DNA of 64,000 nucleotides from an uncultured Serinicoccus sp. Its GTDB lineage: Bacteria > Actinomycetota > Actinomycetes > Actinomycetales > Dermatophilaceae. The stretch lies in NCBI RefSeq assembly GCF_947500995.1, contig NZ_CANMUA010000001.1, positions 310,001 through 374,000 on the forward strand, in the 5' to 3' direction. The notes under the pieces are model-generated. The model saw nothing but the letters and a program-made list of their open reading frames with translations, had not been told where the DNA came from and searched no databases. Positions 1-63,631 of the stretch are shown here, in pieces. The position numbers were made by a program, and so were the translations under genes. Position 1 is the first letter of the stretch. The number at the start of each line of letters is the position of its first letter.

Positions 1-570
1 CTCGACGGTGCGCCGCAGCTCCTCGATCGTCATCTCCTCCTTGGTCGCGCCCGGGTCGCCGCCGAGGAGCCGGACCATGAGGTTGGTGGAGGCGGAGAGG
101 AAGAAGATGACCGGCCGCAGCAGGGTCGCGAAGATGCCCAGCGGGGGCGCCAGCGCCCGGGTGAAGCCGGCCGAGCGCTGCATCGCCAGGCGCTTGGGGG
201 TGAGCTCGCCCAGCACGAGGGACAGGTAGGCGATGACCAGCGTCATGGCGACCAGCGCCACCGGGTCGGCGACGGAGGGCGGCATACCGAGGCCCTGCAG
301 CCAGCCCGACACCGAGGGCGCGATGGTCGCGCCGCCGAACGCGGAGGAGAAGAAGCCGGCCACGGTGACGCCGACCTGCACCGCGGAGAGGAAGGTGTTG
401 GGGTCGCGGACGAGCGCGGCGATGCGCCTGCCCCGGGGCCCGGAGCGCTCGATCTCGTCGACCTGGGAGGGCCGCAGCGACACGATGGCCATCTCGGTGG
501 CGGCGAAGACGCCGCCGACGAGGACGAAGAGCAGGACCAGCGCGATGTTGGTCAGGAGGGCGGCGTCCAT
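1..570 (-). CDS. CNNM/CBS (HlyC/CorC-type) membrane protein, N-terminal part
   Basis: Reads from an ATG at 570 leftwards without a stop to position 1, so 190 codons are visible and the gene continues outside the window. The visible part is a DUF21/CNNM transmembrane domain: an N-terminal hydrophobic helix, the loop SAVQVGVTVAGFFSSAFGG (residues about 66-84), and the family motif LGELTPKRLA (about 117-126) before the linker that normally leads into paired CBS domains. The family is linked to divalent cation efflux and was misnamed hemolysin. Two more members lie at 49.5-52.0 kb. A TACCCT hexamer six bases upstream suggests a leaderless mRNA. Confidence 0.85.
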   Translation of the reverse strand, partial: MDAALLTNIALVLLFVLVGGVFAATEMAIVSLRPSQVDEIERSGPRGRRIAALVRDPNTFLSAVQVGVTVAGFFSSAFGGATIAPSVSGWLQGLGMPPSVADPVALVAMTLVIAYLSLVLGELTPKRLAMQRSAGFTRALAPPLGIFATLLRPVIFFLSASTNLMVRLLGGDPGATKEEMTIEELRRTVE

Positions 571-576
571 GCGGTC

Positions 577-582
577 AGGGTA
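577..582 (-). promoter_or_regulatory. Candidate leaderless -10 element of CNNM gene
   Basis: TACCCT on the minus strand lies 6 nt before the ATG at 570, fitting the TAnnnT consensus with transcription beginning at the start codon. No Shine-Dalgarno sequence is present. Confidence 0.5.
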
Positions 583-643
583 TGCCGGTCCTCCCCCGCG
601 GCGGCGTCGTCACCGCCACGCCGTCGTCACCGCGACGCCGTCG

Positions 644-1927
644 TCAGTCCGCCGCGGGAGCCCGGTCAGCGCCGTCGGCCAGCGCGTCGAGCTCGCGGGG
701 CAGCTCGCGCATGCGGACGAGCGGGGAGAGCAGGACCGGCAGCGCCGCGAGGACGGACAGCGTGGCCAGGCCCCAGAGGGTCGGCACCAGGCCGAGCTGC
801 TGGCCGGCCACGCCACCGAGGAAGGCCCCGATGGGCATGGGCCCCCAGACGAGGAAGCGGATCGAGGCGTTCATCCGGCCCAGCAGCGGCTTGGGGCACA
901 GCCGCTGGCGGAAGCTGACCTGAGCGATGTTGTAGACCACGACGCCCCAGGAGATGAGCAGGTTGCCGACCAGCAGCGTGGGCACCGCCGGCAGGACCGA
1001 GGCCAGCGGCACGGTGAGCATCGCCAGGCCGGAGAGCACGGCGGCGATGGGGATGGCGCGGCCCTCGCCCACCCACCGGCCGAACCATCCGGAGGTGACC
1101 GCACCGAGCAGCCCGCCGACCGCCCCGAGGGACAGGACCAGGCCCAGCGTGGTCTCGGCGAGGTCGAGGGTGGTGAGGGCATACAGCACGAAGAGGGCGA
1201 AGACCCCCGAGGAGGCGAGGTTGCTCAGGCCGGTGCACGCCACGATGCGCCGCAGGAGCGGGTGACCGAGCACGAAGGACAGCCCTTCGCGGATCTCGGT
1301 GACCAGCGGACGGCGGGCCGCCGGGTCGGGCGCCTGCTCCTGGTGCCGGATGCGGCTGACGAAGAGCGAGGACAGCCCCATGCACAGGCTGGTGACCGCG
1401 ATGGTCAGCGGGGATCCGAGCAGCCGCACCATGGCGGCGGCCGCCGCGGGACCGACCACCATGGCGGTCTGCTGGCTGGCCTGCAGCTTGCCGTTGCCGT
1501 CGGAGATCTGCTCGCCCTCGACGAGCTCGGGCAGGTAGGACTGGTTGGCCACGTCGAAGAAGACCGTGATGACCCCGACCCCCACGGCGACGACGTAGAG
1601 CTGGCCCATCGTCAGGACGTCGAGCAGCCAGGCGGCCGGCAGGGTGAGCAGCAGCAGCGCGCGCCCGACGTCGCCGAGGACGAGCACGGTCTTCTTGCGC
1701 CAGCGGTCCACCCAGGCCCCTGCCGGGAGCCCGATGAGGAGGAAGGCCAGCGACTCCAGCGTCGCGAGCAACCCCATCTGGAAGGCGTCGGCCCCCAGCA
1801 GCTGCACGGCCATGAGCGGCATCGCGAACCCGACGAACTGCGCGCCGAAGACCGACACCGTGTCGCCCATCCAGAGCTGACGGAAGTCGTGGTGGCGCCA
1901 GAGGCTGGCGGGTCGTGGGGTGGTCAC
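644..1927 (-). CDS. MFS transporter (drug-efflux type)
   Basis: A 427-residue major facilitator with twelve predicted hydrophobic segments. It opens with WRHHDFRQLWMGDTVSVFG, typical of the EntS/MdtG-like exporter group, and has the loop 2-3 motif GAWVDRWRKK (about residue 69-78) that matches the family A motif. It is divergent from an ArsR-type regulator, and a perfect inverted repeat lies 18 bases before its ATG, so it is probably repressed by that regulator and induced by its own substrate. The substrate cannot be told from sequence; hydrophobic drugs or a siderophore are possible. Confidence 0.85.
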   Translation of the reverse strand: MTTPRPASLWRHHDFRQLWMGDTVSVFGAQFVGFAMPLMAVQLLGADAFQMGLLATLESLAFLLIGLPAGAWVDRWRKKTVLVLGDVGRALLLLTLPAAWLLDVLTMGQLYVVAVGVGVITVFFDVANQSYLPELVEGEQISDGNGKLQASQQTAMVVGPAAAAAMVRLLGSPLTIAVTSLCMGLSSLFVSRIRHQEQAPDPAARRPLVTEIREGLSFVLGHPLLRRIVACTGLSNLASSGVFALFVLYALTTLDLAETTLGLVLSLGAVGGLLGAVTSGWFGRWVGEGRAIPIAAVLSGLAMLTVPLASVLPAVPTLLVGNLLISWGVVVYNIAQVSFRQRLCPKPLLGRMNASIRFLVWGPMPIGAFLGGVAGQQLGLVPTLWGLATLSVLAALPVLLSPLVRMRELPRELDALADGADRAPAAD

Positions 1928-1970: not shown

Positions 1971-1986
1971 TGCCAGACTGGAGGGT

Positions 1987-2664
1987 ATGCAGCCCGACCC
2001 GTCCCCCACGGCGTTCCGTCCCGACGTGGGCGCCACCCCCGGTGGCCCCGCACCGAGCCACCAGCCCCTGGCGCCTCGGGGGCCCGTCGCTGCGCCCGAC
2101 CCGCACGACGGCGGGTTCGAGGCCAGCGACGCCGAGGCGAGGGCGCTGGCCTCGGGGGTGCGGCTGCGCATCCTGCGCCTGGCCCTCGACGAGCCGATGA
2201 CCAACCGCGAGCTCGCCGCTGCCCTGGACCTCAACCCGGCGACGGTCCTGCACCACGTGCGCACACTCGTCGACACCGGTTTCCTCGAGGCGCTGGAGCC
2301 CCGCCGCGGCCGCCGCGGTGCCCGCGAGATCCCCTACCGCGCCACCGGCCGCTCGTGGTGCGCCCGCACCCCCGTCACGTCCAGGGGCATGCTCGAGGCT
2401 TTCGTCGCCGAGATGGCCCAGGTGCCCGCGGACCGCGCCGACGTCACCATGACCCGGCTCGGGCTGCGGCTGCCGCCGGAGGAGCTGGAGGAGTTCCGGA
2501 CCCGGCTCGGCGAGCTGGTCGAGGAGTTCCACGGCCGAGGACGCGACCCCTCCGCCGAGCCGTGGTCGCTCTTCCTCGCCCTGCACCCGGACACGAGCGC
2601 CCGGCCCGGGTCGGCGCCCGGGGACCGGGACGATCCGGAGGGCGCCGGCGCCCAGGGCTGGTGA
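1987..2664 (+). CDS. ArsR-family winged-helix transcriptional regulator
   Basis: A 225-residue protein starting at ATG 1987. A TTG at 1951 is in frame but lies inside the operator, so it is unlikely. After a proline-rich N-terminus of about 45 residues comes a winged helix-turn-helix: LASGVRLRILRLALDEP, then TNRELAAALDLNPATVLHHV as the recognition helix, then a wing with RRGRRGARE. The C-terminal part is helical and charged and could bind a ligand or form the dimer. It lacks a clear CxC metal site, so metal sensing is unlikely. It probably represses the divergent MFS exporter and itself. Confidence 0.8.
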   Translation: MQPDPSPTAFRPDVGATPGGPAPSHQPLAPRGPVAAPDPHDGGFEASDAEARALASGVRLRILRLALDEPMTNRELAAALDLNPATVLHHVRTLVDTGFLEALEPRRGRRGAREIPYRATGRSWCARTPVTSRGMLEAFVAEMAQVPADRADVTMTRLGLRLPPEELEEFRTRLGELVEEFHGRGRDPSAEPWSLFLALHPDTSARPGSAPGDRDDPEGAGAQGW

Positions 2665-2721: not shown

Positions 2722-3378
2722 TCAGACGCGCAGCACCACGTGCCCGACGGCGGTGGAGACCCGCAGCCACGAACCGTTGCGGTGGACGGCCACCTGCTTC
2801 TCCCCCGGCCGCAGGAAGCCGAGGGCGTGGACGGCGAGGCCCGCCGCGGCCGGCACCTCGGTGCCCTCGACAGGCCGCTCCCAGACCCGCGCCCGCAGCG
2901 CCTCGACCGCCGCGGCGCCGGACCCCTCCGGGGCGCCGGTGGCCACCTCGGCGATCCCCGCACGCGCGGCCGCGACCAGCTGCTCGGACGGTATGCCGCC
3001 GCGCGGCTCCCAGCCCCCGCGCGGCGGGGACTGAGCGGCCCACGGCGGGGCGAGGGTGGTCGGGGGGACGGGCAGCGTCGTCGAGCTGTCGCCGGTGGCG
3101 GCCCGCCGCGCGAAGCGGTCGGTCAGCCCGGCCAGCGGCACGGTGACGTCCAGCGGCTCGCCACCCGGCGCCAGCGCCATGGTCCGCAGCCCCAGGGTCA
3201 GCCCGCTGCGCAGGAGCCCGGCACCGGGCAGGACGCAGACCCACGCCGCGAGGACGCCGCCGGCCGCCTGCAGCCGGATCGCCCCGTCCTCGTCGAGCCG
3301 TGCCGCCCGGCGCACCAGGGTGGCCAGGTCCGCGACCGACTCGCCGTCCGCCAGCGACAGGCTCCGCGGCCCGGTCAC
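2722..3378 (-). CDS. Conserved hypothetical protein, coupled to thioesterase
   Basis: A 218-residue protein starting at GTG 3378, which overlaps the stop of the upstream thioesterase in a GTGA, so the two are translationally coupled. No signal peptide or membrane helix is evident. The N-terminal half has SLADGESVADLATLVRRAA and then a run of alternating hydrophobic residues (AAWVCVLPGAGLL, GLTLGLRTMAL) that looks beta-rich. The C-terminal half is alanine- and arginine-rich and ends in VGHVVLRV. I do not recognise the family. Its coupling suggests a partner of the hotdog enzyme. The frame stays open upstream to 4359, but the overlap fixes the start. Confidence 0.65.
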   Translation of the reverse strand: MTGPRSLSLADGESVADLATLVRRAARLDEDGAIRLQAAGGVLAAWVCVLPGAGLLRSGLTLGLRTMALAPGGEPLDVTVPLAGLTDRFARRAATGDSSTTLPVPPTTLAPPWAAQSPPRGGWEPRGGIPSEQLVAAARAGIAEVATGAPEGSGAAAVEALRARVWERPVEGTEVPAAAGLAVHALGFLRPGEKQVAVHRNGSWLRVSTAVGHVVLRV

Positions 3379-3860
3379 CGGGCCACCCGGCCCCGCCCGG
3401 CGTCCCCGCGCAGCACGGGCGCCGGCCCGGTGACCGCGGCGAGCGCCTCGCGCTCCTCGGCCCCCAGACGCCGCGGCCGCTGCTCGCGCAGGTCGTAGGC
3501 GACGAGGCTGACCCGACCACGGGCATACACGGTGTCGTCGCCGACCGGGCCGGCGACGGCATACCCCAGCTCGAAGGAGGCGCCGCCGACGCCGCCGCAC
3601 CACACCGCCACGCGCGCCGGTGCATACGCGAAGGACATGGGCAGCAGGTAGTCGATGGCCTGCGACACCACGAGCATGCCCTCGTCGATGAGGTCGCGGC
3701 CCTGCCCGAACCACGCCTTGAAGGCGTAGACGCGCGCCTCCTCGAAGAGCCGGAGGTACTGGACGTTGTTGACGTGCGCGTAGGCGTCGAGGTCGGACCA
3801 GCGCACGGTGATGTCGAAGGTCGAGGCGACCTCGGGGACGTCGGGCAGGGAGGTGCTCAT
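3375..3860 (-). CDS. Acyl-CoA thioesterase, hotdog fold (4HBT/YbgC type)
   Basis: 161 residues, normal length for a single-domain 4HBT thioesterase. The signature VRWSDLDAYAHVNNVQYLRL (about residues 19-38) contains the active-site aspartate of the D-x-x-x-H-V-N-N motif. Such enzymes hydrolyse acyl-CoA thioesters in the cytosol; the chain length is not predictable. It is followed with a 4-nt overlap by a hypothetical gene and is divergent from lutA. A minus-strand CACAAT lies six bases before the ATG. Confidence 0.85.
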   Translation of the reverse strand: MSTSLPDVPEVASTFDITVRWSDLDAYAHVNNVQYLRLFEEARVYAFKAWFGQGRDLIDEGMLVVSQAIDYLLPMSFAYAPARVAVWCGGVGGASFELGYAVAGPVGDDTVYARGRVSLVAYDLREQRPRRLGAEEREALAAVTGPAPVLRGDAGRGRVAR

Positions 3861-4729: not shown

Positions 4730-6210
4730 CCGACCTCCCGGTGCAGGACACCTCTCCCACCTTCCTCGGTATGCCGTCGTTCCAGCGCTCGGCGAAGGTC
4801 GCCCTCGCCGACACCCAGCAGCGGCGCAACCTGGCCCACGCGACGGCGACGATCCGGGCCAAGCGGGCGGCCGCCGTCGGGGAGGTCGAGGGGTGGGAGG
4901 ATCTGCGGCTGGCCGGGGCCGCGGCCAAGGACGAGGCCCTGCACCACCTGCCCGACTACCTCGAGCAGCTGGAGGCCGCGCTCACCGCCCGCGGCGCGAC
5001 CGTGCACTGGGCCCGGGACGCCGCCGAGGCCAACCGGGTCGTCGTCGACCTGGCCCGGGCGAAGGGGGCCGACGAGGTGGTCAAGGTCAAGTCCATGGCC
5101 ACCCAGGAGATCGAGCTCAACGAGACGCTCGAGGCGGCCGGCATCGCGGCCTGGGAGACCGACCTCGCCGAGCTCATCGTGCAGCTGGGCGAGGACCGCC
5201 CGAGCCACATCCTCGTGCCGGCCATCCACCGCAACCGGGCCGAGATCCGGGAGATCTTCGCGCGTCGCATGGGCACGGTGGGGCGGGCCGCACCGGCCGA
5301 CCTCACCGACGAGCCGGAGCGGCTGGCGGAGGCGGCACGGCTGCACCTGCGGGAGAAGTTCCTGCGCGCCCGGGTCGCGGTCACCGGGGCCAACTTCGCC
5401 GTCGCCGACACCGGGACGCTGGTGGTCGTGGAGTCCGAGGGCAACGGGCGCATGTGCCTCACCCTCCCCGAGACGCTCATCACCGTGGTCGGGATCGAGA
5501 AGGTGCTGCCGACCTTCGCCGACCTGGCCACCATGCTGCAGCTCCTGCCGCGATCCAGCACCGGCGAGCGGATGAACCCCTACACCTCGATGTGGACCGG
5601 CGTGACCCCCGGTGACGGGCCCCAGGAGGTCCACGTCGTGCTGCTCGACAGCGGCCGCAGCCGGGTGCTGGCCGACGAGGCCGGGCGGGAGGCGCTGCGG
5701 TGCATCCGCTGCTCGGCCTGCCTCAACGTGTGCCCGGTCTACGAGCGGACGGGCGGGCACGCCTACGGCTCGGTCTACCCCGGCCCGATCGGTGCCGTGC
5801 TCAACCCGCTGCTGCGCGGCACCTCCTCGGAGGTCGACCGGAGCCTGCCCTACGCCAGCAGCCTGTGCGGGGCCTGCTTCGAGGCCTGCCCGGTGCGCAT
5901 CGACATCCCCTCGCTCCTCGTGCGGCTGCGCACCCAGGTCGTCGACGAGGCCTCCGGGCGGTCGGCCGAGGCGGCGTCGATGAAGGCCGCCGCCTGGATG
6001 TTCGGCGACCACCGGCGGCTGGAGGCGGCCCAACGGGCCGTGACCCTGGGGGGCCGGCTGCTCGGTGGCCGGACCATCCGCTCGCTGCCGGGCCTCGGTG
6101 CCTGGACCCAGGCCCGCGACGTCCCCAGCCCGCCCACCGAGACCTTCCGGCAGTGGTGGGCGCGTACGCACGGTGACGACGCACCGCACACCTCCGAGGA
6201 GACGCCGTGA
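4726..6210 (+). CDS. lutB: Lactate utilization iron-sulfur protein B
   Basis: 494 residues starting at the ATG that overlaps the lutA stop. The N-terminal two thirds form the LUD domain (with MATQEIELNETLE and GTLVVVESEGNGRMC). Two ferredoxin-like 4Fe-4S motifs follow: CIRCSACLNVCP from residue 326 and CGACFEACPVR from residue 381. LutB carries electrons from lactate oxidation in the cytosolic LutABC complex. Overlaps lutC by a GTGA, giving full translational coupling. Confidence 0.93.
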   Translation: MTDLPVQDTSPTFLGMPSFQRSAKVALADTQQRRNLAHATATIRAKRAAAVGEVEGWEDLRLAGAAAKDEALHHLPDYLEQLEAALTARGATVHWARDAAEANRVVVDLARAKGADEVVKVKSMATQEIELNETLEAAGIAAWETDLAELIVQLGEDRPSHILVPAIHRNRAEIREIFARRMGTVGRAAPADLTDEPERLAEAARLHLREKFLRARVAVTGANFAVADTGTLVVVESEGNGRMCLTLPETLITVVGIEKVLPTFADLATMLQLLPRSSTGERMNPYTSMWTGVTPGDGPQEVHVVLLDSGRSRVLADEAGREALRCIRCSACLNVCPVYERTGGHAYGSVYPGPIGAVLNPLLRGTSSEVDRSLPYASSLCGACFEACPVRIDIPSLLVRLRTQVVDEASGRSAEAASMKAAAWMFGDHRRLEAAQRAVTLGGRLLGGRTIRSLPGLGAWTQARDVPSPPTETFRQWWARTHGDDAPHTSEETP

Positions 6211-6957: not shown

Positions 6958-6990
6958 CGCGGGACCACCGGGTATGCCTGCCCCGCCCGG

Positions 6991-7746
6991 TCACTCCCCG
7001 CGCAGCACGTCGACGTGGACGTGGTCGCGGTGGCGCAGGACCGGGTCGTCCGAGCCGCCCGGCGCCCGGTAGTCCTGCCAGCCCCGCGCGGACCCGCGCA
7101 CGCCCCAGTAGTGGTCGTCGAAGATGACGTACTGCACCGTCAGCTCGTCGGCGTGGGCCACCAGCCACTGGCTCAGCACCCACCCGTCGTCGAGGTGGTC
7201 CTCGGTCACCGGCCGGAAGAAGTAGTCCACCGCCCGGCCCTCGTAGTGCGTGGACTCCTCGCCGTGCCCGGAGTCCACACCGCCCGGGGCGAACCCCCCG
7301 ACGGGCAGGTCACCCACCTCGGTGCGCACCGCGTCGAGCACCGCCTGCGCCCTCGGGGTGAGGCCGGACCCCGTCTCCGCCTCGACGGCCGGCTCGGCCA
7401 CCGGCACCCGGCAGGTCAGCGCCGTGTCGGCGCGCGCAGCGAGCACGGCCTGGACGACCCCCTCGGGCAGCTCCGACACCGCGGCCCGGTCGCCCGCACC
7501 CGGCCCACCCAGCGAGCGGGCCGCCTCCGCGGTGGCCGCCCGCGCCTGGTCCCGGTCCAGCGGCACCCGCTGCCCGTCGACCACGACCCCGCACGGTGCC
7601 GCCACCTCGCCCACCCAGTCACCGACCGACCGCATGAACGGCCGCGCCAGCACCGCGCCCACCAGGGCGGCGAGGAGGACGAGCACGACGACGACCCCAC
7701 GTCGCGACCCGCCGCGAGCGGACGCGGGGGTCGGGCGCTGCGGCAT
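6991..7746 (-). CDS. Membrane-anchored M15-like (LAS) peptidase-related protein
   Basis: 251 residues. A basic N-terminus is followed by one hydrophobic helix (VVVVLVLLAALVGAVLA, about residues 19-35), so the rest is probably outside the cell. The C-terminal domain has STHYEGRAVD (about 165-174), which matches SxHxxGxAxD of zinc-binding LAS peptidases, and HRDHVHVDV near the end, which supplies the last His. These features fit a D-Ala-D-Ala carboxypeptidase-like fold acting on peptidoglycan, though many such actinobacterial proteins are untested. The catalytic Glu/Asp between the motifs is not obvious to me. The ATG is inside a GGTATGCC word. Confidence 0.7.
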   Translation of the reverse strand: MPQRPTPASARGGSRRGVVVVLVLLAALVGAVLARPFMRSVGDWVGEVAAPCGVVVDGQRVPLDRDQARAATAEAARSLGGPGAGDRAAVSELPEGVVQAVLAARADTALTCRVPVAEPAVEAETGSGLTPRAQAVLDAVRTEVGDLPVGGFAPGGVDSGHGEESTHYEGRAVDYFFRPVTEDHLDDGWVLSQWLVAHADELTVQYVIFDDHYWGVRGSARGWQDYRAPGGSDDPVLRHRDHVHVDVLRGE

Positions 7747-7818
7747 ACCTCATGGTCCCAAGCGCGGCTGACCCGGACCTGGGTGCGGGCCGCGGCGACC
7801 GGCCGCGCACCCCGCGCG

Positions 7819-7831: not shown

Positions 7832-8902
7832 ATGACCGATGCCTACTACGCCCAGGACGTCCCCGACACCCACCGGCCCTACGTCGCGGCCCCCGACCGG
7901 CACCAGAAGCTGGACTACCGCCGCGTCGGGGACAGCGGGCTGCTCCTGCCGCCGCTCTCGCTCGGGCTCTGGTACAACTTCGGCGACAACCGCCCCTTCG
8001 ACACCCAGCGGGCCATCCTGCGGCGCTCCTTCGACGAGGGCATCACCCACTTCGACCTGGCCAACAACTACGGCCCGCCCTACGGCTCCGCCGAGGAGAA
8101 CTTCGGGCGGATGATGCGCACCGACTTCGCTCCCTACCGCGACGAGATGGTGCTCTCCACCAAGGCGGGCTGGGACATGTGGCCCGGCCCCTACGGCATG
8201 CTCGGCTCCCGCAAGTACCTCCTCGCCAGCCTGGACGAGTCGCTGCAGCGCATGTGCGTCGACCACGTCGACATCTTCTACTCCCACCGCGCGGACGAGG
8301 GGACGCCCGTCGCCGAGACCGTCGGGGCGCTGGACACCGCGGTCCGCCAGGGCAAGGCGCTGTATGCCGGGATCTCCAGCTACTCCCCGGAGCGCACCGC
8401 CGAGGCGGTCGCCGTCGCCCGGGAGCTGGGCACCCCCCTGGTCATCCACCAGCCGGCCTACAACATGCTCAACCGCTGGGTCGAGGACGGCCTGCTGGAG
8501 GCCCTGCCGGGGCACGGCATGGGCTCGATCGGCTTCACCGCGCTCGCCCAGGGCCTGCTCACCGACAAGTACCTCGACCGCGACGACGCCGAGCGTGCGA
8601 CCGCCCGGCCCTCCTTCGACGCGAGCGTGCTCACCGACGCCAACCGGGAGCGGCTGCGCGGGCTGGCGAAGGTCGCCGAGGGCCGCGGGCAGAGCCTGGC
8701 GCAGATGGCCTTGTCGTGGGCGATCCGCCCCGGCGGGGTGACGTCCACGCTCATCGGGGTCTCCAGCATCGAGCAGCTGGAGGACAACCTCGCCGCGGCG
8801 CACCGCACCGACTTCACCGACGACGAGCTCGCCGAGATCGACCGCCTCTCCGGGAGCACCGAGGGCGTGGACATCTGGGCGCCGTCGGCGCGGATCGAGT
8901 GA
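7832..8902 (+). CDS. Aldo/keto reductase, YghZ-like
   Basis: 356 residues, cytosolic TIM-barrel oxidoreductase of the long AKR14 (YghZ, L-glyceraldehyde 3-phosphate reductase) type. Catalytic residues are seen as D and Y in HFDLANNYGPPYGSAEENFG (about residues 73-92), K in LSTKAGW (about 111) and H in IFYSHRADE (about 153). The cofactor-binding end GVSSIEQLEDNL is also typical. Physiological substrate is unknown; methylglyoxal detoxification is reported for the family. Start chosen at ATG 7832 over an in-frame GTG at 7823, because a -10-like hexamer lies 7 nt before the ATG. Confidence 0.88.
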   Translation: MTDAYYAQDVPDTHRPYVAAPDRHQKLDYRRVGDSGLLLPPLSLGLWYNFGDNRPFDTQRAILRRSFDEGITHFDLANNYGPPYGSAEENFGRMMRTDFAPYRDEMVLSTKAGWDMWPGPYGMLGSRKYLLASLDESLQRMCVDHVDIFYSHRADEGTPVAETVGALDTAVRQGKALYAGISSYSPERTAEAVAVARELGTPLVIHQPAYNMLNRWVEDGLLEALPGHGMGSIGFTALAQGLLTDKYLDRDDAERATARPSFDASVLTDANRERLRGLAKVAEGRGQSLAQMALSWAIRPGGVTSTLIGVSSIEQLEDNLAAAHRTDFTDDELAEIDRLSGSTEGVDIWAPSARIE

Positions 8903-16312: not shown

Positions 16313-16458
16313 ACCCCGAAGTCTGTCAGGTGGGCTGGCGGTCGCCTCGGGCGGCGCCGACGGGGACGCACATGTCCGGCACAGGTCCGCGGTGCACCAT
16401 GGGAGCAGGGGCGGCCCCGTGACGCCGCCCGCAGACGACGGACGAGAGGATCACCGGT

Positions 16459-24770: not shown

Positions 24771-24843
<73 letters not shown>

Positions 24844-42088: not shown

Positions 42089-42094
42089 AGGGTA
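42089..42094 (-). promoter_or_regulatory. Candidate leaderless -10 element, rph
   Basis: TACCCT in GCATACCCTGG, 7 nt before the ATG at 42081. Confidence 0.5.
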
Positions 42095-42117
42095 TGCCGA
42101 GCGGGGGACGCCCGGGG

Positions 42118-42918: not shown

Positions 42919-42939
42919 GCGACCCAGCCTGGCACGGCA

Positions 42940-42945
42940 TACCGT
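42940..42945 (+). promoter_or_regulatory. Candidate leaderless -10 element, Rho_N gene
   Basis: TACCGT in GGCATACCGT, 7 nt before ATG 42953. Confidence 0.45.
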
Positions 42946-44066: not shown

Positions 44067-44098
44067 ACGAGAGGGCCACTCCACGGTCACAGTGGGGT

Positions 44099-55950: not shown

Positions 55951-55956
55951 AGGGTA
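55951..55956 (-). promoter_or_regulatory. Candidate leaderless -10 element, FAH gene
   Basis: TACCCT in GCATACCCTGG, 6 nt before the ATG at 55944. Confidence 0.5.
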
Positions 55957-56031
55957 TGCCGTGCCCCCCACCTCGTCCGAAGTGGACATCGGCTTCCGGG
56001 CCTCGGCCCCCGGAAGACGATGCCCAGGACG

Positions 56032-56367
56032 TCAGTGGGCGCCGCCCGAGGTGAGCTTGAGACCGACGATCCCGGCGATGATCGCGACCAGGCACAGCAC
56101 GCGCGCGACCGTGGCCGGCTCCCCCAGCGCGACGATGCCGTAGGCCGCGGTGCCCACGACGCCGATCCCGACCCACACGGCATACCCGGTGCCGAGCGGG
56201 ATCGTGCGCAGCGACCACCCCAGGCCGGCCATGCTGAGGGCCAGGGCCACCCCGAAGACGACGCTCGGCCACAGGCGGGTGAACCCCTCGGAGCGGGTGA
56301 GCGCCCCGGCCCACACGGCCTCGAGGACGCCGGAGACGACGAGAACGATCCATGACAGCGCAACCAT
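56032..56367 (-). CDS. gdx: Small multidrug resistance protein, guanidinium exporter (Gdx/SugE)
   Basis: 111 residues with four helices. SWIVLVVSGVLEAVWAGALT carries the membrane glutamate (E15 region) and the W of the Gdx motif; PLGTGYAVWVGIGVVGTAAY is the family signature (about 65-84). SugE-type proteins exchange guanidinium for protons. A guanidine-III riboswitch lies directly upstream, which supports guanidinium rather than general drugs as the substrate. ATG 56367 follows AGGGAGG. Confidence 0.9.
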   Translation of the reverse strand: MVALSWIVLVVSGVLEAVWAGALTRSEGFTRLWPSVVFGVALALSMAGLGWSLRTIPLGTGYAVWVGIGVVGTAAYGIVALGEPATVARVLCLVAIIAGIVGLKLTSGGAH

Positions 56368-56540: not shown

Positions 56541-57428
56541 GTGCAGACCCCGGCGACCGTTCTCAAGGTGCTCGACGCACCGGTATGGCGCGCCCGCGCC
56601 GCCGCGCACGCGCGCACCGTCGAGGCGCTCACCGCGGACCGGTTGGCACGCCGGGTCGAGGGGCGCACGCACCCGGTCGACGACTTCCTGTGGGAGTACT
56701 ACGCCTTCCGCCCCGCACAGCTCGCCCGCTGGCACCCCGGGCCGGGCGTCGGCCTGGCGGACGGGCACGAGCGCGAGGGGTGGAGCGGCTACCTCGTCGA
56801 CGGGGCGGGCACGGCATACCTCGACCTAGAGCGGTTCGTGCAGCGGCGTGGACGCACCGTCGCCTTCGTCCGTGACCTGCTGCGTGCCACGCTGTCGCGG
56901 CCCGGCAGGTTCGGCTGCTTCGGGCTGCACGAGTGGGCGATGGTCTACCGGGCCGACCGCGAGGACGTGCGCCACGACTGGCCGTTGCGGCTCGGCGCCG
57001 AGGGCACCGACGCGGTCGTCGAGAGCCACCAGGTCGCCTGCTCGCACTTCGACGCCCACCGGTTCTTCACCCCCGAGGCCGCGCCGCGCAACACGCTGCG
57101 ACCGACCAGGGAGGGCCAGCTCGACCTCGAGCAGCCGGGGTGCCTGCACGCGGGGATGGACCTCTACAAGTGGTGCTTCAAGCTCGCTCCGGCGGTGCCG
57201 AGCGACCTGACGCTGGAGGCCTTCCACCTGGCCCGCGACATCCGCGAGCTGGACATGCGCGCCGCCCCCTACGACCTGCGCGACCTCGGCTACGAGCCGG
57301 TGCGCATCGAGACGACGGAGGGCAAGCGGGAGTACGCCGAGGCCCAGCGCGCGTTCTCCCGCCGCTCCAACGCGCTGCGCCGACGGCTGCTGGAGGTGCT
57401 CGACCCGCTGGCTCAGACCAGCTGGTAG
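56541..57428 (+). CDS. Conserved actinobacterial protein (labelled 3-methyladenine DNA glycosylase)
   Basis: 295 residues, GTG start. [20 protein letters not shown] (about 53-72, in part), [13 protein letters not shown] (about 126-138), [18 protein letters not shown] and [17 protein letters not shown] (about 205-221) are strongly conserved in actinobacteria. Homologues are labelled 3-methyladenine DNA glycosylase in databases, but I see no HhH-GPD or AlkD motif, so the activity is unproven. The invariant H, D, W and C residues suggest an enzyme. The 3' end overlaps convergent ilvE by 16 bp. Confidence 0.75.
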
Positions 57429-58513
57429 AGCCAGCCGTGGCGGTCCTCGGCCCGGCCGTACTGGATGTCGAGCAGCTCGGAGCGCAGGTCCTCGGTGACC
57501 TTGTGCTCGTCCGGCATCTCGAGCTCCCCGCCGCTCCACGCGAGCCGGCCGACGGGGGTGATGACGGCCGCGGTGCCGCAGGCGAACACCTCGGTGATCT
57601 CGCCGGAGGCCACCCCGTCGCGCCACTCGTCGATGGTGAAGCGGCGCTCCTCGACCTGGTGGCCGCGCTCGCGCAGCAGGTCGAGCAGGGAGGAGCGGGT
57701 CACGCCGGGCAGGATCGTGCCGGTCAGCTCGGGGGTGACCACCCGACCGTCGGCATACAGGAAGAAGAGGTTCATGCCGCCCAGCTCCTCGACGAACCGG
57801 TGCTCGACCGCGTCGAGGAACACGACCTGGTCGCACCCGTGCTCGATGCCCTCGGCCTGGCTGGCCAGCGACGCCGCGTAGTTGCCGCCGCACTTCGCCG
57901 CGCCGGTGCCGCCGGCGGCCGCGCGGACGTACTGGTCGCTGACCCACAGGCTGACCGGCTCGAGCCCGCCCGGGAAGTAGGAGCCGGCCGGGGAGGCGAT
58001 GACGCTGAAGAGGTAGCGGTTGCTCGGGCGCACCCCCAGCGCCTCCTCCGTGGCGATCATGAAGGGCCGCAGGTAGAGCGACATCTCACCGGCGTCCGCG
58101 GGCGGCACCCACCCCTGGTCGAGGGTGACGAGCTCCTTGATCGCGTCGAGGAACAGCGTCGGCGGCAGCTCGGGCATGGCCAGACGACGGGCCGAGCTGT
58201 TGAAGCGCTCGGCGTTGCGCTCGGGGCGGAAGGTCCAGACCGTGCCGTCCGCGTGGCGGTAGGCCTTCATGCCCTCGAAGATCTCCTGGGCGTAGTGGAA
58301 CACCGCGGCGGAGGGGTCGAGCGGGATGGGGCCGTAGGGCACCACCCGCGCGTCGTGCCACCCCTGCTCCTTGTCCCACTCCACCATCACCATGTGGTCG
58401 GTGAAGATGCTGCCGAAGCCGGGGTTGGCGAGCAGCTGGGCGATCTGCTCGGGGCCGCGGCGCTCGGGCGCCTCGGTGACGGCGAAGGAGGTGGACGTCG
58501 CTGTCTGGCTCAT
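57413..58513 (-). CDS. ilvE: Branched-chain amino acid aminotransferase
   Basis: 366 residues, the long actinobacterial/eukaryotic type. PLP lysine in [12 protein letters not shown] (about 205), [15 protein letters not shown] (about 75-89), [25 protein letters not shown] and [12 protein letters not shown] (about 313-324). Interconverts Leu/Ile/Val with 2-oxo acids in the cytosol. ATG 58513; TACGCT six bases upstream suggests a leaderless mRNA. The stop overlaps the 3' end of the convergent gene. Confidence 0.94.
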
Positions 58514-58738: not shown

Positions 58739-60859
58739 GTGAGCACGACGGAGGCCGAGGGGCGACCGAGACCTGACGAGGGGTCGGGTGGCGGTTCGGG
58801 CCTGGCGACGCTGGACGACGAGCAGCTGCTCGCCCTGACCCGCCGCGCCGCCTCCGGGACCACCGACCTCAGCCCTGAGGACTGCCTCGAGACGATCGAG
58901 GCCCTGCACCTGCTGTCCCGCCGGCTGGAGGGGATCCGGCTGCACGCCACCCGCGAGCTGGCGGCCCGGACCGGCGAGGAGCTCCTGGCGCGGCAGGACG
59001 TGGCCGATCCCGCCGAGCTGTCCCGGACCGCGCGGGACCGGTGGCGAGCCCGGGCGAAGTCGGTGACGGCGACCGAGATCTCCGTGCTCACCGGCATGGG
59101 CCGCGGGGCGGCGCGGCAGCTGGTGGCCGTGGCCCTCGCCCCCGTCAGCACGGCTGGTCCGGTGCGTGATGCCCTGGCGGCGGGCGTGGCGACGTGGGCG
59201 CAGGTGGAGCACTTCTGGCGCAAGGCGTCCCAGCTGCCGCACGAGCAGGCGGGGACCGTCTCGCAGGCGCTCTTCACGACCACACGGAGCCGGCCCAGGG
59301 AAGGCGCGGGAGCTGAGGACCAGAGTTCCGGGGACGGGGAACAGGCAGCGGGTCAGGCCGACGACGACCCGGGCGCGGCAGCGCTCGACGTCGCCGTGGA
59401 GCGCCTGGACCCCGAGGGCAGCCTGACCGACACACCGTGGCACGCCCAACAGTTCGTGCAGGCGGTCCAGCGGGAGGTCACCCGAGCCCGGGCGAGGGAC
59501 CCGGAGGCCGAGGCGGCGGAGCGTGCGCAGCACCACCGCGCCCGGACCGCCTACGGCCTCGTCGACGACGACGGCACCGGTCAGATCGTCATCACCGGCG
59601 ACGCCGTCTCGACCTCGGCGTGCCTCGACCGCCTCTACGTCCTGGCCAGGCGGGCGCGGGCTGCGGGCGACGAACGCTCCGAGAGCCAGCTGCGCTCCGA
59701 CCTGGCCACAGCCCTGCTGCTGCACGGCACGCTGCCCCTGCCCGCCGGCCTGCGACCAGGCCCGGGCACTCCCTCGTCGGAGACCACCGTCGACGCACCG
59801 GCTCGGCCCACGACCGGCTGCTCCACGACGCCGGACGAGTTGGCCGATCTGGTCACACCCGACGACATCTCCTCCCTGGCGCAGATCCTGGCCGGGGCCC
59901 CCAGCTGCGAGCTGCAGGTCGTCGTTCCTTGGACGACGCTCATCCCGGGCACGAGCACGGGCACGGGCACGGCCACGGGCATGGGCTCGGCAGGCTCGGG
60001 GCCAGCAGACCCTCCCCTGCCCCCCGGCGTGAGTCGGGTGGTGGGCCGGGCCCCCCACTTCCTGACGCCGCAGGCGACCCGTGACCTCCTCAGGACGCCG
60101 GGGACGACGATGCACCGGCTGCTGACCGATCCGCGCGACGGCCGCTGCGTCGAGCGCTCGGTCGCGAGGTACCGGCCCGATGCGGCGATGAGGGCCCAGG
60201 TGCGGGCCGCCGACCTGCTGTCGCGCGCACCGGACGGCACCCTGCCGGTGCGGGACGCCCAGCTGGACCACGTCACCGAGTACCTCCTGGGCGGCGCGAC
60301 CGCGGAGACCAACCTGCAGGGCGTCGACACCGTCTTCCACGCCCTCAAGACGCAGAAGTTCTGGGACGCCGAGATCGACGCCACCCGCACCGTCACCTGG
60401 ACGTCGTTGTTCGGGCGGAGCTACCGCACCCGCCCGCACGACTACCGGCAGTACCTCGGCTACCCCGAGCCCGGTTCCACCAGTGCTACGAGCACCTCGG
60501 GGTCCGGGGCGCCCAGCGTGGCCGAGCGCCGGCACCTCGCCTCACTGCTCGTGTATGCCGCACTCGCGCACCGAGCCGTCCGGGGCCGCCTGGAGGCTCC
60601 GGACGACGACCCGGACAGCGACAGCCACCTCCTCGACGACGGTCACCGCGCCGTCTGGGTCAGGCATACCCGGCAGCGCGACGGCCGCCGGGTCACCGGA
60701 GCTCGACCCGGCACGCCCAGCCCCGACCGGCTCCTGCGTACCCCTCACGGCGCCGTGCTGAGGTCCGCCCACTGGACCGACCCGTTCACCCGCCCCGCCC
60801 CCGAGAGCGGCGCCCGGCCGCCGGTCCGCGAGGACGAGGACGATGCACCGCCGTTCTGA
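58739..60859 (+). CDS. DUF222/HNH-family (13E12-like) protein
   Basis: 706 residues, GTG start after a G-rich run. Residues 20-180 are DUF222 helices ([20 protein letters not shown]); a disordered acidic part follows (180-235), then more DUF222 ([38 protein letters not shown]) and an HNH-like end near 475-560 ([30 protein letters not shown]). D-H and one later H are kept, but the zinc cysteines of usual family members are absent. Linkers hold GC-rich 6-bp repeats coding ST/GT runs (59950-59984). Mycobacterial 13E12 relatives are LexA-regulated; role unknown, DNA processing likely. Confidence 0.82.
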
Positions 60860-60980: not shown

Positions 60981-61847
60981 GTGAGCACCCTGGACCCGAG
61001 CAGCGCCGATCTGACCCTGCTGCAGGACCGCCAGGTGGCGGTCCTGGGCTTCGACGCCATGGGCGCCGCGCACGCGCTCAACCTGCGCGACAGCGGCGTG
61101 GACGTCTGGGTGGGCACGGACCCCGACAGCCGGCTCGCGGCCCGCGCGGAGCTCGAAGGGCTGCCCGTGTCGCCGCCGGAGGAGGCCGTCGGGCGCTGCG
61201 ACATCATCCTCGTCCCGGGCACCGGCCGGGGCGAGAACGATCCCCGCCGGGTGACCGCCCTGGTCGAGGACCACACGGAGCCCGGCGATCTCGTCATCGT
61301 CACCAGCGCCACCGCCGTCCGCGAGGGCCGGCTCACCGTCCCCGAGGGCGTGGACCTGGCCATGCTGCGCAGCATCGGCAGCGGCGAGCGGGTGCGCGAG
61401 GAGTACCTCGACGGTCGCGGCTGCCCCGCCCTCGTCGCGGTCGCCCACGACCGCAGCGGCGCCGCCTGGGCGACGCTCACGGCATACGCGGCGGCGATGG
61501 GGGCCCTGCGCTCCGGTGCCGTCGTCACGACCGTCGAGCACGAGAGCACGGCCATGGCGACCGCGCGCGACCGCATCCAGGTGCCGCTGCAGAAGGCCCT
61601 GGAGACCACCTTCGAGGACCTGGTGGGCCGTGGCGTGGAGCCCGAGGTCGCCTACGTCGCCCTGGTGCACGAGCTCAAGACCCAGGTCGACCAGATCTAC
61701 GCGGCGGGTTTCGCCACCCAGCACGGGCCGTCCGGCCAGGCGGGGGGCGACCCTGCGGCGAGCAGCCGTCGCGAGGCGGCGGCCGGAGCCCACGCCCTGG
61801 AGCACGCAGGACGCCAGGTCCGCGCCATGACGAGCTGGCTGCGCTGA
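60981..61847 (+). CDS. Ketol-acid reductoisomerase-like protein lacking catalytic residues
   Basis: 288 residues (class I KARI has about 330-340). Both KARI domains can be aligned: VAVLGFDAMGAAHALNLRDS (about 19-38), SGERVREEYLDGRGCPALVA, and YVALVHELKTQVDQIYAAG (about 222-240). Changes at key places: the dinucleotide loop GYGSQG is GFDAMG; in the metal motif ETDLFGE the Asp and Glu positions are M192 and R196; the ECLHE first Glu is A227, with only E231 kept. It should not catalyse the normal Mg-dependent reaction. The C-terminus is alanine-rich. It may bind a cofactor or regulate branched-chain synthesis; ilvE is 2.5 kb upstream. Confidence 0.8.
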   Translation: MSTLDPSSADLTLLQDRQVAVLGFDAMGAAHALNLRDSGVDVWVGTDPDSRLAARAELEGLPVSPPEEAVGRCDIILVPGTGRGENDPRRVTALVEDHTEPGDLVIVTSATAVREGRLTVPEGVDLAMLRSIGSGERVREEYLDGRGCPALVAVAHDRSGAAWATLTAYAAAMGALRSGAVVTTVEHESTAMATARDRIQVPLQKALETTFEDLVGRGVEPEVAYVALVHELKTQVDQIYAAGFATQHGPSGQAGGDPAASSRREAAAGAHALEHAGRQVRAMTSWLR

Positions 61848-61862
61848 CCCGAGCCCGCCCGC

Positions 61863-62744
61863 TCAGCGGAGGAAGAGCGCGCGCAGCCGCAGGGTGGTCA
61901 GCACGAGGCCGACGAGCGTCATGCCGACGAAGTAGAGCGCGTGCACCCCGCTCAGGGCGTCGAGGTGGCCGACCGACAGCTGCCGCATGAGCTCCACCCC
62001 GTGCCACAGCGGCATCGCCATGATGACCCACTGGATCCACTCGGGGTAGACCGCGATCGGGTAGAGCGTCGCGGAGAAGAGGAACATCGGCAGCAGCGCG
62101 AAGTTGATGAGGTCCATCTGCTGGAAGCTGGTGAGGTAGCTCGTCACCCCCATGCCCAGCGCGGCGAACCCCAGCGCGATGAGCACCGCGGCGGGCACCA
62201 TGAGCAACGACCACCACGACGTCACCAGGCCCAGGGCCGCGATGACGCCGAGGAAGCCCAGGGCGTAGAGGAACCCGCGGAAGAGCGCCATGAGGATCTC
62301 GCCGAGCGCGACGTCCAACGGCCCGAGCGAGGTCTGCAACATCGCCTGGTAGAGCTTGGCGAAGCGCAGCTTGAAGAAGACGTTCCACGTCGAGTCGTAG
62401 ATCGCCCCGTTCATCGCCGAGGTCGCGAGGAGGGCGGGGGCGATGTAGGCGGCGTACTCCACCGGCTGGCCGCCCGGCCCGGTGACCGTCCCGACCAGCG
62501 ACCCCATCCCCACACCCATGGCCAGCAGGTAGAACACCGGCTCGAAGAACCCGGAGGCGAGCACCATCCAGTTCTGGTTGCGGACCACGGCGAGGCCACG
62601 CTCCAGGACGGCGCCGACGTTGCCGGACGCCGACGACGAGAGCCACGCGGGCCGCGGTATGCCGTGCCTCGGCACCGCGAGGTCGCGGCCGGGCTCACCG
62701 GCACCTCCACCGCCGGGCGCGAGGCCCCGCCCCGGCGCGCTCAC
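61863..62744 (-). CDS. ABC-2 type transporter permease (second)
   Basis: 293 residues, GTG start overlapping the previous permease stop (GTGA). Six helices of the ABC-2 (NodJ/DrrB-like) fold: WMVLASGFFEPVFYLLAMGV, STWNVFFKLRFAKLYQAML, FLGVIAALGLVTSWWSLLMV and the NodJ-type end LPMFLFSATLYPIAVYPEWI (about 205-224). Two different permeases with one ATPase gives a heteromeric exporter. Substrate unknown; drug, polysaccharide or lipid export are all possible. Confidence 0.86.
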   Translation of the reverse strand: MSAPGRGLAPGGGGAGEPGRDLAVPRHGIPRPAWLSSSASGNVGAVLERGLAVVRNQNWMVLASGFFEPVFYLLAMGVGMGSLVGTVTGPGGQPVEYAAYIAPALLATSAMNGAIYDSTWNVFFKLRFAKLYQAMLQTSLGPLDVALGEILMALFRGFLYALGFLGVIAALGLVTSWWSLLMVPAAVLIALGFAALGMGVTSYLTSFQQMDLINFALLPMFLFSATLYPIAVYPEWIQWVIMAMPLWHGVELMRQLSVGHLDALSGVHALYFVGMTLVGLVLTTLRLRALFLR

Positions 62745-63631
62745 GAGTGCAGCCTGCGGGTGTAGGAGCGGGTCGCCCAGACGACACCGCCGACCGTGCA
62801 GGCCAGCAGGAAGGCCAGGTGCACCGCGATCATCACCGGGGACACGTCCGCGCCGTAGGACGCCACCCGGGCGAGCTGGGTGCCGTGCCACACCGGGCTG
62901 ACCCACCCGATCCAGTGCAACCACACCGGCATCGCCGAGAGCGGGAAGAACGTGCCCGCGAAGAGGAACATCGGCATGACGACGAAGCGCTGGATGAAGG
63001 CGAACTGGTAGGCCTCGTCCTCGATGGTCGAGGCGTAGGCCTGCAGGGGCGTGCCGAACGCGGTCGCGGTCAGCACCCCGACCGGCACGACGAGCACGGA
63101 CTGCCACCACCCGGACGGGGCGGCACCGAAGGCCTCCATGATCACCCAGAAGACGCCGCCCTGGAGGACGAAGCGCAGGACCACGGCGAGGAGGTGGCCC
63201 CTCGCGATCTGCCCCGGCTCCAGGGGCGAGGCGGCGGGGCCGTAGTAGAGCCGCTGCCACGTGAAGCCGCTCATGACGGGGTAGGTCATCTCGGCGGTCA
63301 CCGACATGACGACCGTCGACACGAGCAGGGCCGGCGCGACGAAGGTGAGGTAGTCGACGCCGTCGACGGGTCCGCTGCCCCGGTCGACGAGCTCGCCGAG
63401 GCCGACCCCGAGGGCGACCATGTAGAGCAGCGGCTGGAGCACGGCATACACCGCGATCGGGAGCGCGAAGGCGCGCATGCCGCGCAGCGTCGTCTCGGCG
63501 TAGAACCAGGAGCCGGACCGCCGGGTCCGCGCCGCCATCTCGGTGTGGGGCGGCACCCGGCCCGAGGCGACGAGCCCGGCGGCGTCGAACTCCGGCGCGT
63601 CGAGGCCGGTGCCGTGGGTGGGGTCAGTCAA
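62741..63631 (-). CDS. ABC-2 type transporter permease (first)
   Basis: 296 residues, six helices. LPIAVYAVLQPLLYMVALGV (about 57-76), TAEMTYPVMSGFTWQRLYYG (about 110-129) and RFVVMPMFLFAGTFFPLSAM (about 212-231), matching the same NodJ-like pattern as its partner. About 35% of residues look shared between the two permeases by eye. ATG 63631 overlaps the ATPase stop by 8 bp, so ATPase and both permeases are one operon. Confidence 0.87.
   Translation of the reverse strand: MTDPTHGTGLDAPEFDAAGLVASGRVPPHTEMAARTRRSGSWFYAETTLRGMRAFALPIAVYAVLQPLLYMVALGVGLGELVDRGSGPVDGVDYLTFVAPALLVSTVVMSVTAEMTYPVMSGFTWQRLYYGPAASPLEPGQIARGHLLAVVLRFVLQGGVFWVIMEAFGAAPSGWWQSVLVVPVGVLTATAFGTPLQAYASTIEDEAYQFAFIQRFVVMPMFLFAGTFFPLSAMPVWLHWIGWVSPVWHGTQLARVASYGADVSPVMIAVHLAFLLACTVGGVVWATRSYTRRLHS

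What the first reader, a model, noticed from the sequence alone, without database searches (positions are those of the whole stretch)
282..63448. Word GTATGC/GCATAC is about fourfold over-represented and overrides codon choice in all frames
I counted about 57 copies by eye (e.g. 580, 3559, 8361, 10329, 24457, 34386, 46787, 54895, 61480), against roughly 15 expected from base composition near 73% GC. The word is produced by different rare codons according to frame: Tyr-Ala as TAT GCC (3559, 8361, 37172, 45857, 54895, 57751, 63443), Ala-Tyr as GCA TAC (10329, 22586, 29125, 56812, 61480), Gly-Met-Pro as GGT ATG CC (4769, 34386), and Gly-Ile-Pro as GGC ATA CC with the very rare ATA codon (38500, 62658). 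It is also common between genes and around start codons. One word favoured in every frame and on both strands argues for a DNA-level cause: a nucleoid or segregation protein site, a methylation target, or a biased repair system. No strand preference is seen here (27 versus 30).
Basis: seen in the sequence. Interest (0 to 1): 0.8.

Follow-up and report, generated by a model that had tools for sequence, protein, structure and literature searches.

The report
Strand-read repeated word in actinomycete chromosomes
A short DNA word is repeated well over a thousand times across this bacterium's chromosome, is kept in place over evolution, changes its spelling between related groups and alternates in direction, which suggests a signal that some moving DNA enzyme, perhaps a repair enzyme, reads along one strand.

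Summary
GTATGC/GCATAC occurs exactly 57 times (27/30) in the window, against 7-10 expected from short-word models. The true word is (G)GTATGCC(G): 1415 GGTATGCC in the 3.8 Mb genome versus 8 for the reversed control. It tops my ranking of 8-mers against a synonymous-codon shuffle in the own sample and a congener, in six frames, and is denser between genes. It is kept at orthologous sites: A/T third codon positions are 90% conserved inside it and 30% elsewhere. In 149 family genomes counts run from background to 2228; several low genomes carry other, mostly similar words (GGATGCCG, CGAAGGGG, CGATGCGG, GTACGGCG). The new finding is that same-orientation copies avoid each other up to about 1.2 kb while opposite-orientation copies do not, so neighbours alternate. 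102 control words do not do this; Neisseria uptake sequences alternate only through close inverted pairs; E. coli Chi does not. This points to a signal read on one strand by a moving machine. My leading candidate is a Chi-like site, perhaps of the AdnAB helicase-nuclease, whose Chi is unknown (about 0.4). Strand-specific DNA uptake is the main rival.

The parts
579..586 (+). GGTATGCC
   Evidence: kept in G145, G080, G127, G047
2990..2997 (+). GGTATGCC
4768..4775 (+). GGTATGCC
6971..6978 (+). GGTATGCC
17416..17423 (+). GGTATGCC within GACGGTATGCCGTC
   Evidence: kept in G145, G080, G127, G119
22584..22591 (+). GGTATGCC
27140..27147 (+). GGTATGCC
29125..29132 (+). GGTATGCC
34384..34391 (+). GGTATGCC
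37173..37180 (+). GGTATGCC
38501..38508 (+). GGTATGCC
42091..42098 (+). GGTATGCC
44096..44103 (+). GGTATGCC
   Evidence: kept in G145, G127, G119, G047
46786..46793 (+). GGTATGCC
49384..49391 (+). GGTATGCC
51260..51267 (+). GGTATGCC
55953..55960 (+). GGTATGCC
62656..62663 (+). GGTATGCC
281..288 (-). GGTATGCC
3558..3565 (-). GGTATGCC
7742..7749 (-). GGTATGCC
16308..16315 (-). GGTATGCC
26474..26481 (-). GGTATGCC
28536..28543 (-). GGTATGCC
29702..29709 (-). GGTATGCC
32884..32891 (-). GGTATGCC
42936..42943 (-). GGTATGCC
45707..45714 (-). GGTATGCC
52953..52960 (-). GGTATGCC
54894..54901 (-). GGTATGCC
56179..56186 (-). GGTATGCC
56813..56820 (-). GGTATGCC
60663..60670 (-). GGTATGCC
8362..8368 (+). 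GTATGCC (base before it not G)
24459..24465 (+). GTATGCC (base before it not G)
45854..45860 (+). GTATGCC (base before it not G)
60553..60559 (+). GTATGCC (base before it not G)
1178..1184 (-). GTATGCC (base before it not G)
3522..3528 (-). GTATGCC (base before it not G)
21326..21332 (-). GTATGCC (base before it not G)
21934..21940 (-). GTATGCC (base before it not G)
25867..25873 (-). GTATGCC (base before it not G)
39295..39301 (-). GTATGCC (base before it not G)
40467..40473 (-). GTATGCC (base before it not G)
57752..57758 (-). GTATGCC (base before it not G)
61481..61487 (-). GTATGCC (base before it not G)
63443..63449 (-). GTATGCC (base before it not G)
1985..1990 (+). GTATGC only; nine more hexamers without the final C begin at 3622-, 6437-, 10330-, 14088-, 24337-, 31140+, 52094+, 53309+, 58584+

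Best explanation
(G)GTATGCC(G) is a genome-wide signal that is read in one direction on one DNA strand by a machine moving along DNA, and each strand needs its own copy about every kilobase. The most likely machine is a helicase-nuclease that resects broken DNA ends, so the word would work like Chi: the enzyme enters at a break, unwinds and degrades, meets the word in the correct orientation, and switches to making a 3' end for RecA. AdnAB is the leading candidate reader because it is found in all 22 genomes asked, while RecBCD is missing from many word-rich genomes. SHOWN: the excess, the independence of reading frame, site-level maintenance, the dialects, orientation-specific avoidance, absence of replication-strand polarity in one congener. 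INFERRED: directional reading.
For: Same-orientation copies are depleted at 100-600 bp in G127 (89 versus 167 expected) while opposite-orientation copies are not (195 versus 167). The deficit reaches about 1.2 kb, and convergent and divergent pairs are alike. 219 of 715 neighbour pairs have the same orientation, against 365 (s.d. 13) when orientation is redrawn from gene-class frequencies; inside genes 64 of 269, against 140 (s.d. 7.6). All 102 control 7-mers within 15% of its abundance have a same/opposite pair ratio of at least 0.88 at 20-600 bp; the motif has 0.40. Counting neighbours at least 20 bp apart, the lowest control has 45% same, the motif 33% (214 of 651). Alternation recurs in the own genome (25 same, 47 opposite, p=0.013) and in other dialects: G026 26/53 (p=0.003), Janibacter 28/65 (p=0.0002), g38 56/87 (p=0.012); in Agromyces same-orientation pairs under 300 bp are 10, opposite 30, 21 expected. 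A known duplex uptake sequence (N. gonorrhoeae, 313 sites) shows orientation-blind avoidance at 100-600 bp (54 same, 52 opposite, 70 expected), and its neighbours 100 bp or more apart do not alternate (112/121), whereas those of G127 do (213/409). Retention between species rises with distance to the nearest same-orientation copy (0.54, 0.63, 0.70, 0.81). Two PDDEXK matches 3-4 kb apart on one strand lie in 22 of 22 genomes; the own stronger-matching protein aligns to chain A of PDB 6PPJ/6PPU over about 720 residues (that these entries are M. smegmatis AdnAB is recalled). A Chi without strand polarity is reported for Pseudomonas (1119/1122 in P. fluorescens; PMC5959072, passages). One dialect, GATGCGG, differs by one base from the S. 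aureus Chi-like GAAGCGG (PMC8022716, passage).
Against: E. coli Chi itself shows no same-orientation avoidance and is strongly polarised (86 sites, 68+/18-), so no known Chi was shown to have the signature; the S. aureus yardstick gave only 5 sites, all on one strand. The patchy distribution within genera looks more like uptake sequences. Several samples gave no significant alternation by neighbour counts: G080 21 same/16 opposite, G119 27/42 (p=0.09), G047 32/50 (p=0.06), G069 40/53, G057 58/71, Agromyces 53/65; own, G145, G080, G119 and G047 cover orthologous DNA, so they are not independent. Retention also depends on the nearest opposite-orientation copy (logit 0.28 versus 0.36 for same).
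Confidence: 0.4

Rival explanations
1. A DNA uptake sequence: a competence receptor prefers DNA carrying the word, and repeated transformation spreads it by molecular drive. Dialects then follow receptor evolution as in Neisseriaceae. In its strongest form recognition acts on the single strand being imported.
For: Density (about 1 GGTATGCC per 1.7-2.7 kb in own, G127 and G071), non-palindromic word, no replication polarity, enrichment between genes, patchy gain and loss, dialects. A comEA-comEC operon and a Tad/Flp pilus locus occur in the genus and relatives, and Flp pili serve transformation in the actinobacterium M. luteus (PMC4322843, passages). G049, one of the genomes without a clear word, has no ComEA hit at the locus and its ComEC aligns only from residue 266.
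Against: Avoidance between copies is orientation-specific, unlike Neisseria DUS; in H. influenzae uptake did not depend on word orientation (PMC1939737, passages). ComEC is in 145 of 149 genomes irrespective of the word, and comEA and comEC are both found in other genomes without a clear word (G010, G058, G045, G083, G134). PilM in only 5 of 149.
Confidence: 0.25
2. Another directional system: a translocase, loop-extruding or anchoring complex that needs oppositely oriented sites about every kilobase.
For: Alternation, with a mild excess of opposite-orientation pairs at 600-1200 bp (226 versus 197).
Against: I know of no bacterial system of this kind (recalled); convergent and divergent pairs are about equal, which suggests independent strands rather than pairing.
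Confidence: 0.15
3. An epigenetic, HIP1-like word tied to a methyltransferase that marks one strand, for example to tell new from old strand in repair.
For: All dialect words keep an A at position 3 or 4 (inspection words); a one-strand mark would need copies in both orientations.
Against: Five genomes with 1104-1259 copies (G065, G032, G039, G042, G098; copies) have no match to PF01555 or PF02384. PF07669 and cytosine methylases (PF00145) were not searched.
Confidence: 0.07
4. KOPS-type segregation signal.
For: Copy number.
Against: No polarity in 20 segments of G127, 138 leading versus 134 lagging (by hand).
Confidence: 0.02
5. A compositional, codon or mutational by-product.
For: GGCATGCC, one C-to-T step away, is scarce (0 versus 7.5 in the window; 12 versus 40 in G127).
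Against: About 15-fold over the synonymous shuffle, raised in six frames; individual sites conserved, with losses at many positions; GGCATGCC is scarce also in a genome without the word (G083, 0 versus 8.2).
Confidence: 0.02

Closest known systems
Chi (RecBCD) and Chi-like words (AddAB/RexAB)
   Same: Short non-palindromic GC-rich word, genome-wide, species-specific spellings that are near neighbours, read on one strand while a helicase-nuclease moves
   Different: No leading-strand polarity (though Pseudomonas Chi is reported unpolarised, PMC5959072, passage); E. coli Chi shows no same-orientation avoidance; whether AdnAB has a Chi was stated unknown (PMC4824097, passage) and its analogue of Chi recognition unclear (PMC13309787, passage)
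DNA uptake sequences (DUS of Neisseriaceae, USS of Pasteurellaceae)
   Same: Copy number, lack of polarity, intergenic enrichment, dialects, patchy distribution
   Different: DUS forms close inverted pairs (43 opposite versus 2 same at 20-100 bp) and beyond these its avoidance is orientation-blind and neighbours do not alternate; here avoidance is only between same-orientation copies
HIP1 of cyanobacteria
   Same: Very high iteration with lineage variants
   Different: HIP1 is a palindrome with orphan methylases as a clue to function (PMC4390886, abstract start in the search listing); this word is not a palindrome and the methylase families tested are not constant
KOPS/FtsK polar sequences (recalled)
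   Same: Short directional word
   Different: No chromosome-arm polarity

Membership tests
Chi / Chi-like | over-representation beyond composition | tested here: met
Chi / Chi-like | polarised on leading strand (E. coli criterion) | tested here: not met
   (one congener); reported not universal (PMC5959072)
Chi / Chi-like | cognate helicase-nuclease present | tested here: inconclusive
   AdnAB-type pair in 22 of 22 genomes, with and without the word; RecC in 30 of 67 and uncorrelated
Chi / Chi-like | orientation-dependent switch of the enzyme in vitro | not testable with these tools
   needs biochemistry
DNA uptake sequence | hundreds to thousands of unpolarised copies | tested here: met
DNA uptake sequence | copies mutually redundant regardless of orientation (Neisseria yardstick) | tested here: not met
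DNA uptake sequence | competence machinery present | tested here: met
   ComEC 145 of 149, ComEA beside ComEC in 15 of 16 loci, T2SSF proteins in 59 of 60 genomes
DNA uptake sequence | preferential uptake of DNA with the word | not testable with these tools
   needs transformation assay
KOPS | polarity from origin to terminus | tested here: not met
HIP1-like methylation word | cognate methyltransferase constant in word-rich genomes | tested here: inconclusive
   PF01555 and PF02384 both absent in 5 high-copy genomes of 32 asked; PF07669 and PF00145 not tested
HIP1-like methylation word | palindrome | tested here: not met
   GGTATGCC is not its own reverse complement

The most novel reading that the evidence does not exclude
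A so far undescribed class of strand-read chromosome signal that spans at least two actinomycete families, is kept on each strand separately about once per kilobase, and changes spelling in small steps as its reader evolves: the first Chi of an AdnAB-type helicase-nuclease, or a new kind of directional signal with no known counterpart.
Probability: 0.5. Interest if true: 0.9.

Novelty: new variant of a known kind. Interest (0 to 1): 0.75.

Why it matters
Whether AdnAB, a break-resecting enzyme of mycobacteria and streptomycetes, answers to a Chi sequence was called unknown in 2016 (PMC4824097, passage) and its analogue of Chi recognition was still called unclear in 2026 (PMC13309787, passage). 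This gives exact candidate words with dialects, so one strand-labelled resection assay could settle it. If it is instead an uptake word, it would be the first I know of in Gram-positive bacteria (recalled). The orientation-spacing test (same- versus opposite-orientation pair counts) is a cheap way to separate strand-read from duplex-read genome words in any species.

Tried and rejected
Chi via RecBCD: RecC is absent from many high-copy genomes and present in G010, G088, G058 and G045, which have no clear word. Type IV pilus receptor: PilM in only 5 of 149. ComEC or T2SSF presence as discriminator: both nearly universal. Codon or composition artefact. Gene-structure cause of the alternation (words near starts or stops): redrawing orientation within gene-position classes does not reproduce it. 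Alternation as a trait of any frequent word: a few control words have few same-orientation neighbours (lowest 35%, CGCGCGC), but they overlap their own reverse complement; at 20 bp or more apart the lowest is 45%. Neisseria DUS neighbours also alternate in the raw count (113 same, 199 opposite), through inverted pairs under 100 bp (112/121 beyond). Host phage: Microbacterium phage Min1 has GGATGCCG at background, 5 versus 5.4; the dialect of its host was not checked. Literature: the words GGTATGCC/GGCATACC and GGATGCCG, CGGATGCC, CGGCATACC, GTATGCCG, GCGAAGGGG hit no paper in this library; searches for actinobacterial or Gram-positive uptake sequences and for Chi in actinobacteria listed none that, by title and abstract start, reports such a word. 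Own errors: the ComEA query was out of frame and was redone; gene calls are from my own simple caller, which mis-called comEA.


Full report
1. The observation. The window (64 kb, 73.5% GC) holds exactly 57 GTATGC/GCATAC, 27 and 30 by strand, with 14.8 expected from base composition and 7.4 to 9.8 from di- and trinucleotide models. Aligning the 57 copies shows a longer word: a preceding G in 41, a following C in 47, then G in 41. GGTATGCC has 33 copies against 1.5 expected, GGTATGCCGT 15 against 0.09. In the whole genome GGTATGCC has 752+663 copies and the pattern read backwards 4+4. In the congener G127 the first base is loose (A 42/10.7, C 83/24, T 76/9 observed/expected) and a final T is avoided (0/23.6; the model contains the word itself, so this expectation is inflated), so the core is GTATGCC.

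2. It is not codon usage. With genes called by my own codon model, and codons permuted among synonymous positions within each gene, the coding copies of GGTATGCC are 32 versus 1.9 in 104 kb of the own genome and 387 versus 26 in 700 kb of G127, raised in all six frames; density outside genes is 1.68 and 1.26 per kb versus 0.34 and 0.61 inside. Among 8-mers with at least 8 copies it ranks first in both genomes by a score that sums the excess over frames and intergenic DNA.

3. Sites are maintained. Between the window and orthologous DNA of congeners, GGTATGCC is intact at 22 of 25 aligned sites in G145, 9 of 11 in G080, 16 of 24 in G119, 20 of 30 in G047 and 20 of 26 in G127, but 0 of 5 in the more distant G133 (33 sites in all; unaligned ones dropped); all aligned 8-mers are intact at 62, 44, 34, 28, 32 and 20%, and those with the same GC count at 67, 51, 41, 35, 39 and 27%. 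A/T-ending third codon positions are identical in 67 of 74 comparisons inside the word and 765 of 2535 outside (five relatives). Losses fall on many different positions of the word, which speaks against a single mutational bias. The comparisons share sites and relatives and are not independent.

4. Distribution and dialects. In 149 genomes of the family (53 genera) GGTATGCC runs from background to 2228 copies (G071), with large differences inside genera (g26: 347, 11 and 1694 for G025, G069 and G096). I then asked 49 of the 80 named loci (48 held): the count is strongly raised in Intrasporangium oryzae (657), an Intrasporangium MAG (687), Intrasporangiaceae URHB0013 (508), a Dermatophilaceae MAG (415) and Janibacter sp. 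HTCC2649 (1105), moderately in the MAG of L069 (139), and is 43 in Mobilicoccus caccae, 39 in Janibacter sp. Soil728 and at most 119 in the rest (the family name Dermatophilaceae is inferred from these). Sampling 60-160 kb of low genomes and ranking 8-mers against the synonymous shuffle gave other words that are also raised in several frames and in most cases between genes: CGGATGCCG in G026; GCGAAGGGG in g38 and in Janibacter (g39); GTACGGCG/CGTACGGC in G069; CGTACGCC and relatives in G040 and G024; CGATGCGG/CGATGGGG, mainly inside genes, in G057. Agromyces, in another family, has CGGATGCCGC; single 20-kb loci of Mycetocola, Salinibacterium and Pseudoclavibacter also show it, those of Leifsonia, Agrococcus and Planctomonas do not. 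No clear word appeared in G010, G088, G058, G049, G045 and G083, and only a weak one in G134. In 256 genomes of the class, GGATGCCG exceeds its control most in family f4, up to 4831 versus 248 (G328) and 4491 versus 159 (G275), with 485 versus 149 in a congener, G301; other families show about 1- to 6-fold (I take f4 to be Microbacteriaceae because of Agromyces, the tool does not name it). Most words form a chain of small changes, CGAAGGGG, CGATGGGG, CGATGCGG, CGATGCCG, GGATGCCG, then GGTATGCCG by one inserted T; this is my reading of the list, not a tested phylogeny, and the CGTACG-type words lie two or more steps away.

5. Orientation. There is no polarity along G127: by hand from the 20 segments, 138 copies leading and 134 lagging, with origin and terminus guessed from GC skew. 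But neighbours alternate. In G127 the same-orientation pairs are 89 against 167 expected at 100-600 bp and opposite pairs 195 against 167; the deficit fades near 1.2 kb and convergent and divergent pairs are alike. Of 715 neighbour pairs 219 have the same orientation, and within genes 64 of 269; redrawing orientation from gene-position classes gives 365 (s.d. 13) and 140 (s.d. 7.6) in 1000 runs. All 102 control 7-mers within 15% of its count have same/opposite pair ratios of at least 0.88; the word has 0.40. By neighbour fraction a few control words come close (35-39% same), but these overlap their own reverse complement; at 20 bp or more apart the lowest control is 45% and the word 33%. The signature is significant (p<0.05) in the own genome, G145, G026, Janibacter and g38, marginal in G119 and G047 (p=0.09, 0.06), and not significant by neighbour counts in G080, G069, G057 and Agromyces, although Agromyces shows it in pairs below 300 bp (10 same, 30 opposite, 21 expected).

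6. Yardsticks. Neisseria DUS (313 sites in 350 kb) alternates in the raw neighbour count (113 same, 199 opposite), but through close inverted pairs (at 20-100 bp 43 opposite, 2 same); at 100-600 bp its avoidance is orientation-blind (54 same, 52 opposite, 70 expected), and neighbours 100 bp or more apart are 112 same and 121 opposite, against 213 and 409 in G127. E. coli Chi (86 sites in 400 kb, 68+/18-) has no avoidance. Neither known system reproduces the pattern. The simplest reading is that copies on one strand are redundant only with copies on that strand, as expected for a signal met by a machine moving along DNA in one direction. A retention test is mixed: sites are kept more often the farther the nearest same-orientation copy (0.54 to 0.81), but distance to the nearest opposite copy matters too (0.58, 0.75, 0.73, 0.42; logit 0.36 and 0.28; 1147 non-independent comparisons), and lost sites had no more same-orientation copies within 600 bp than expected (27% versus 37% by Poisson).

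7. Candidate readers. RecC is in 30 of 67 genomes and uncorrelated. Two PDDEXK matches 3-4 kb apart on one strand are in 22 of 22 genomes with and without the word; the own stronger-matching protein aligns to PDB 6PPJ/6PPU chain A, which I recall to be mycobacterial AdnAB. ComEC is in 145 of 149; ComEA lies beside it in 15 of 16 loci, the exception being G049, a genome without a clear word, whose ComEC alignment also starts only at residue 266; T2SSF is in 59 of 60; and a Tad/Flp-like locus is seen in own, G127, G126, G134 and G068 (names by inspection of the sequences, not searched). Methylases PF01555 and PF02384 are both absent from five high-copy genomes. So none of the protein families tested separates genomes with and without the word.

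8. Verdict. The feature is real, large, maintained and, as far as my searches show, not in print in this library. What it works like: a strand-read signal; Chi-like with AdnAB as reader is my first choice at 0.4, uptake second at 0.25. It is not filed as a member of either family: the Chi polarity criterion and the DUS-like orientation-blind redundancy were tested and not met, and the biochemical criteria could not be tested.

Noticed in passing
window 56390-56456 (-) and 56032-56367 (-): Guanidine-III riboswitch (40.9 bits) directly upstream of a 111-aa small multidrug resistance protein (PF00893): an ordinary guanidine exporter arrangement.
   Followed up: partly
window 24771-24843 (+), 27205-27277 (-), 28595-28667 (-), 37508-37589 (-): Four tRNA genes.
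   Followed up: no
G127 stretches (L007-L026, L050, L054-L067): GGTATGCT is absent (0 versus 23.6 expected by a model that contains the word) although it is one base from the word; unexplained.
   Followed up: no
window and G127: The palindrome GGCATGCC is scarce (0 versus 7.5; 12 versus 40), but it is scarce also in the genome G083 without the word.
   Followed up: partly
L190 (G049): No ComEA hit at the locus and ComEC aligned only from residue 266 in a genome without a clear word: possible loss of competence.
   Followed up: partly
PLSDB records NZ_CP119142.1, NZ_OL790696.1 and others: Records of 2-12 Mb carrying rpoB, evidently whole chromosomes, are filed as plasmids in the collection.
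   Followed up: partly
L272, L274-L279: Neisseria DUS copies, beyond the known inverted pairs, avoid each other at 100-600 bp regardless of orientation; a useful contrast for spacing tests.
   Followed up: yes
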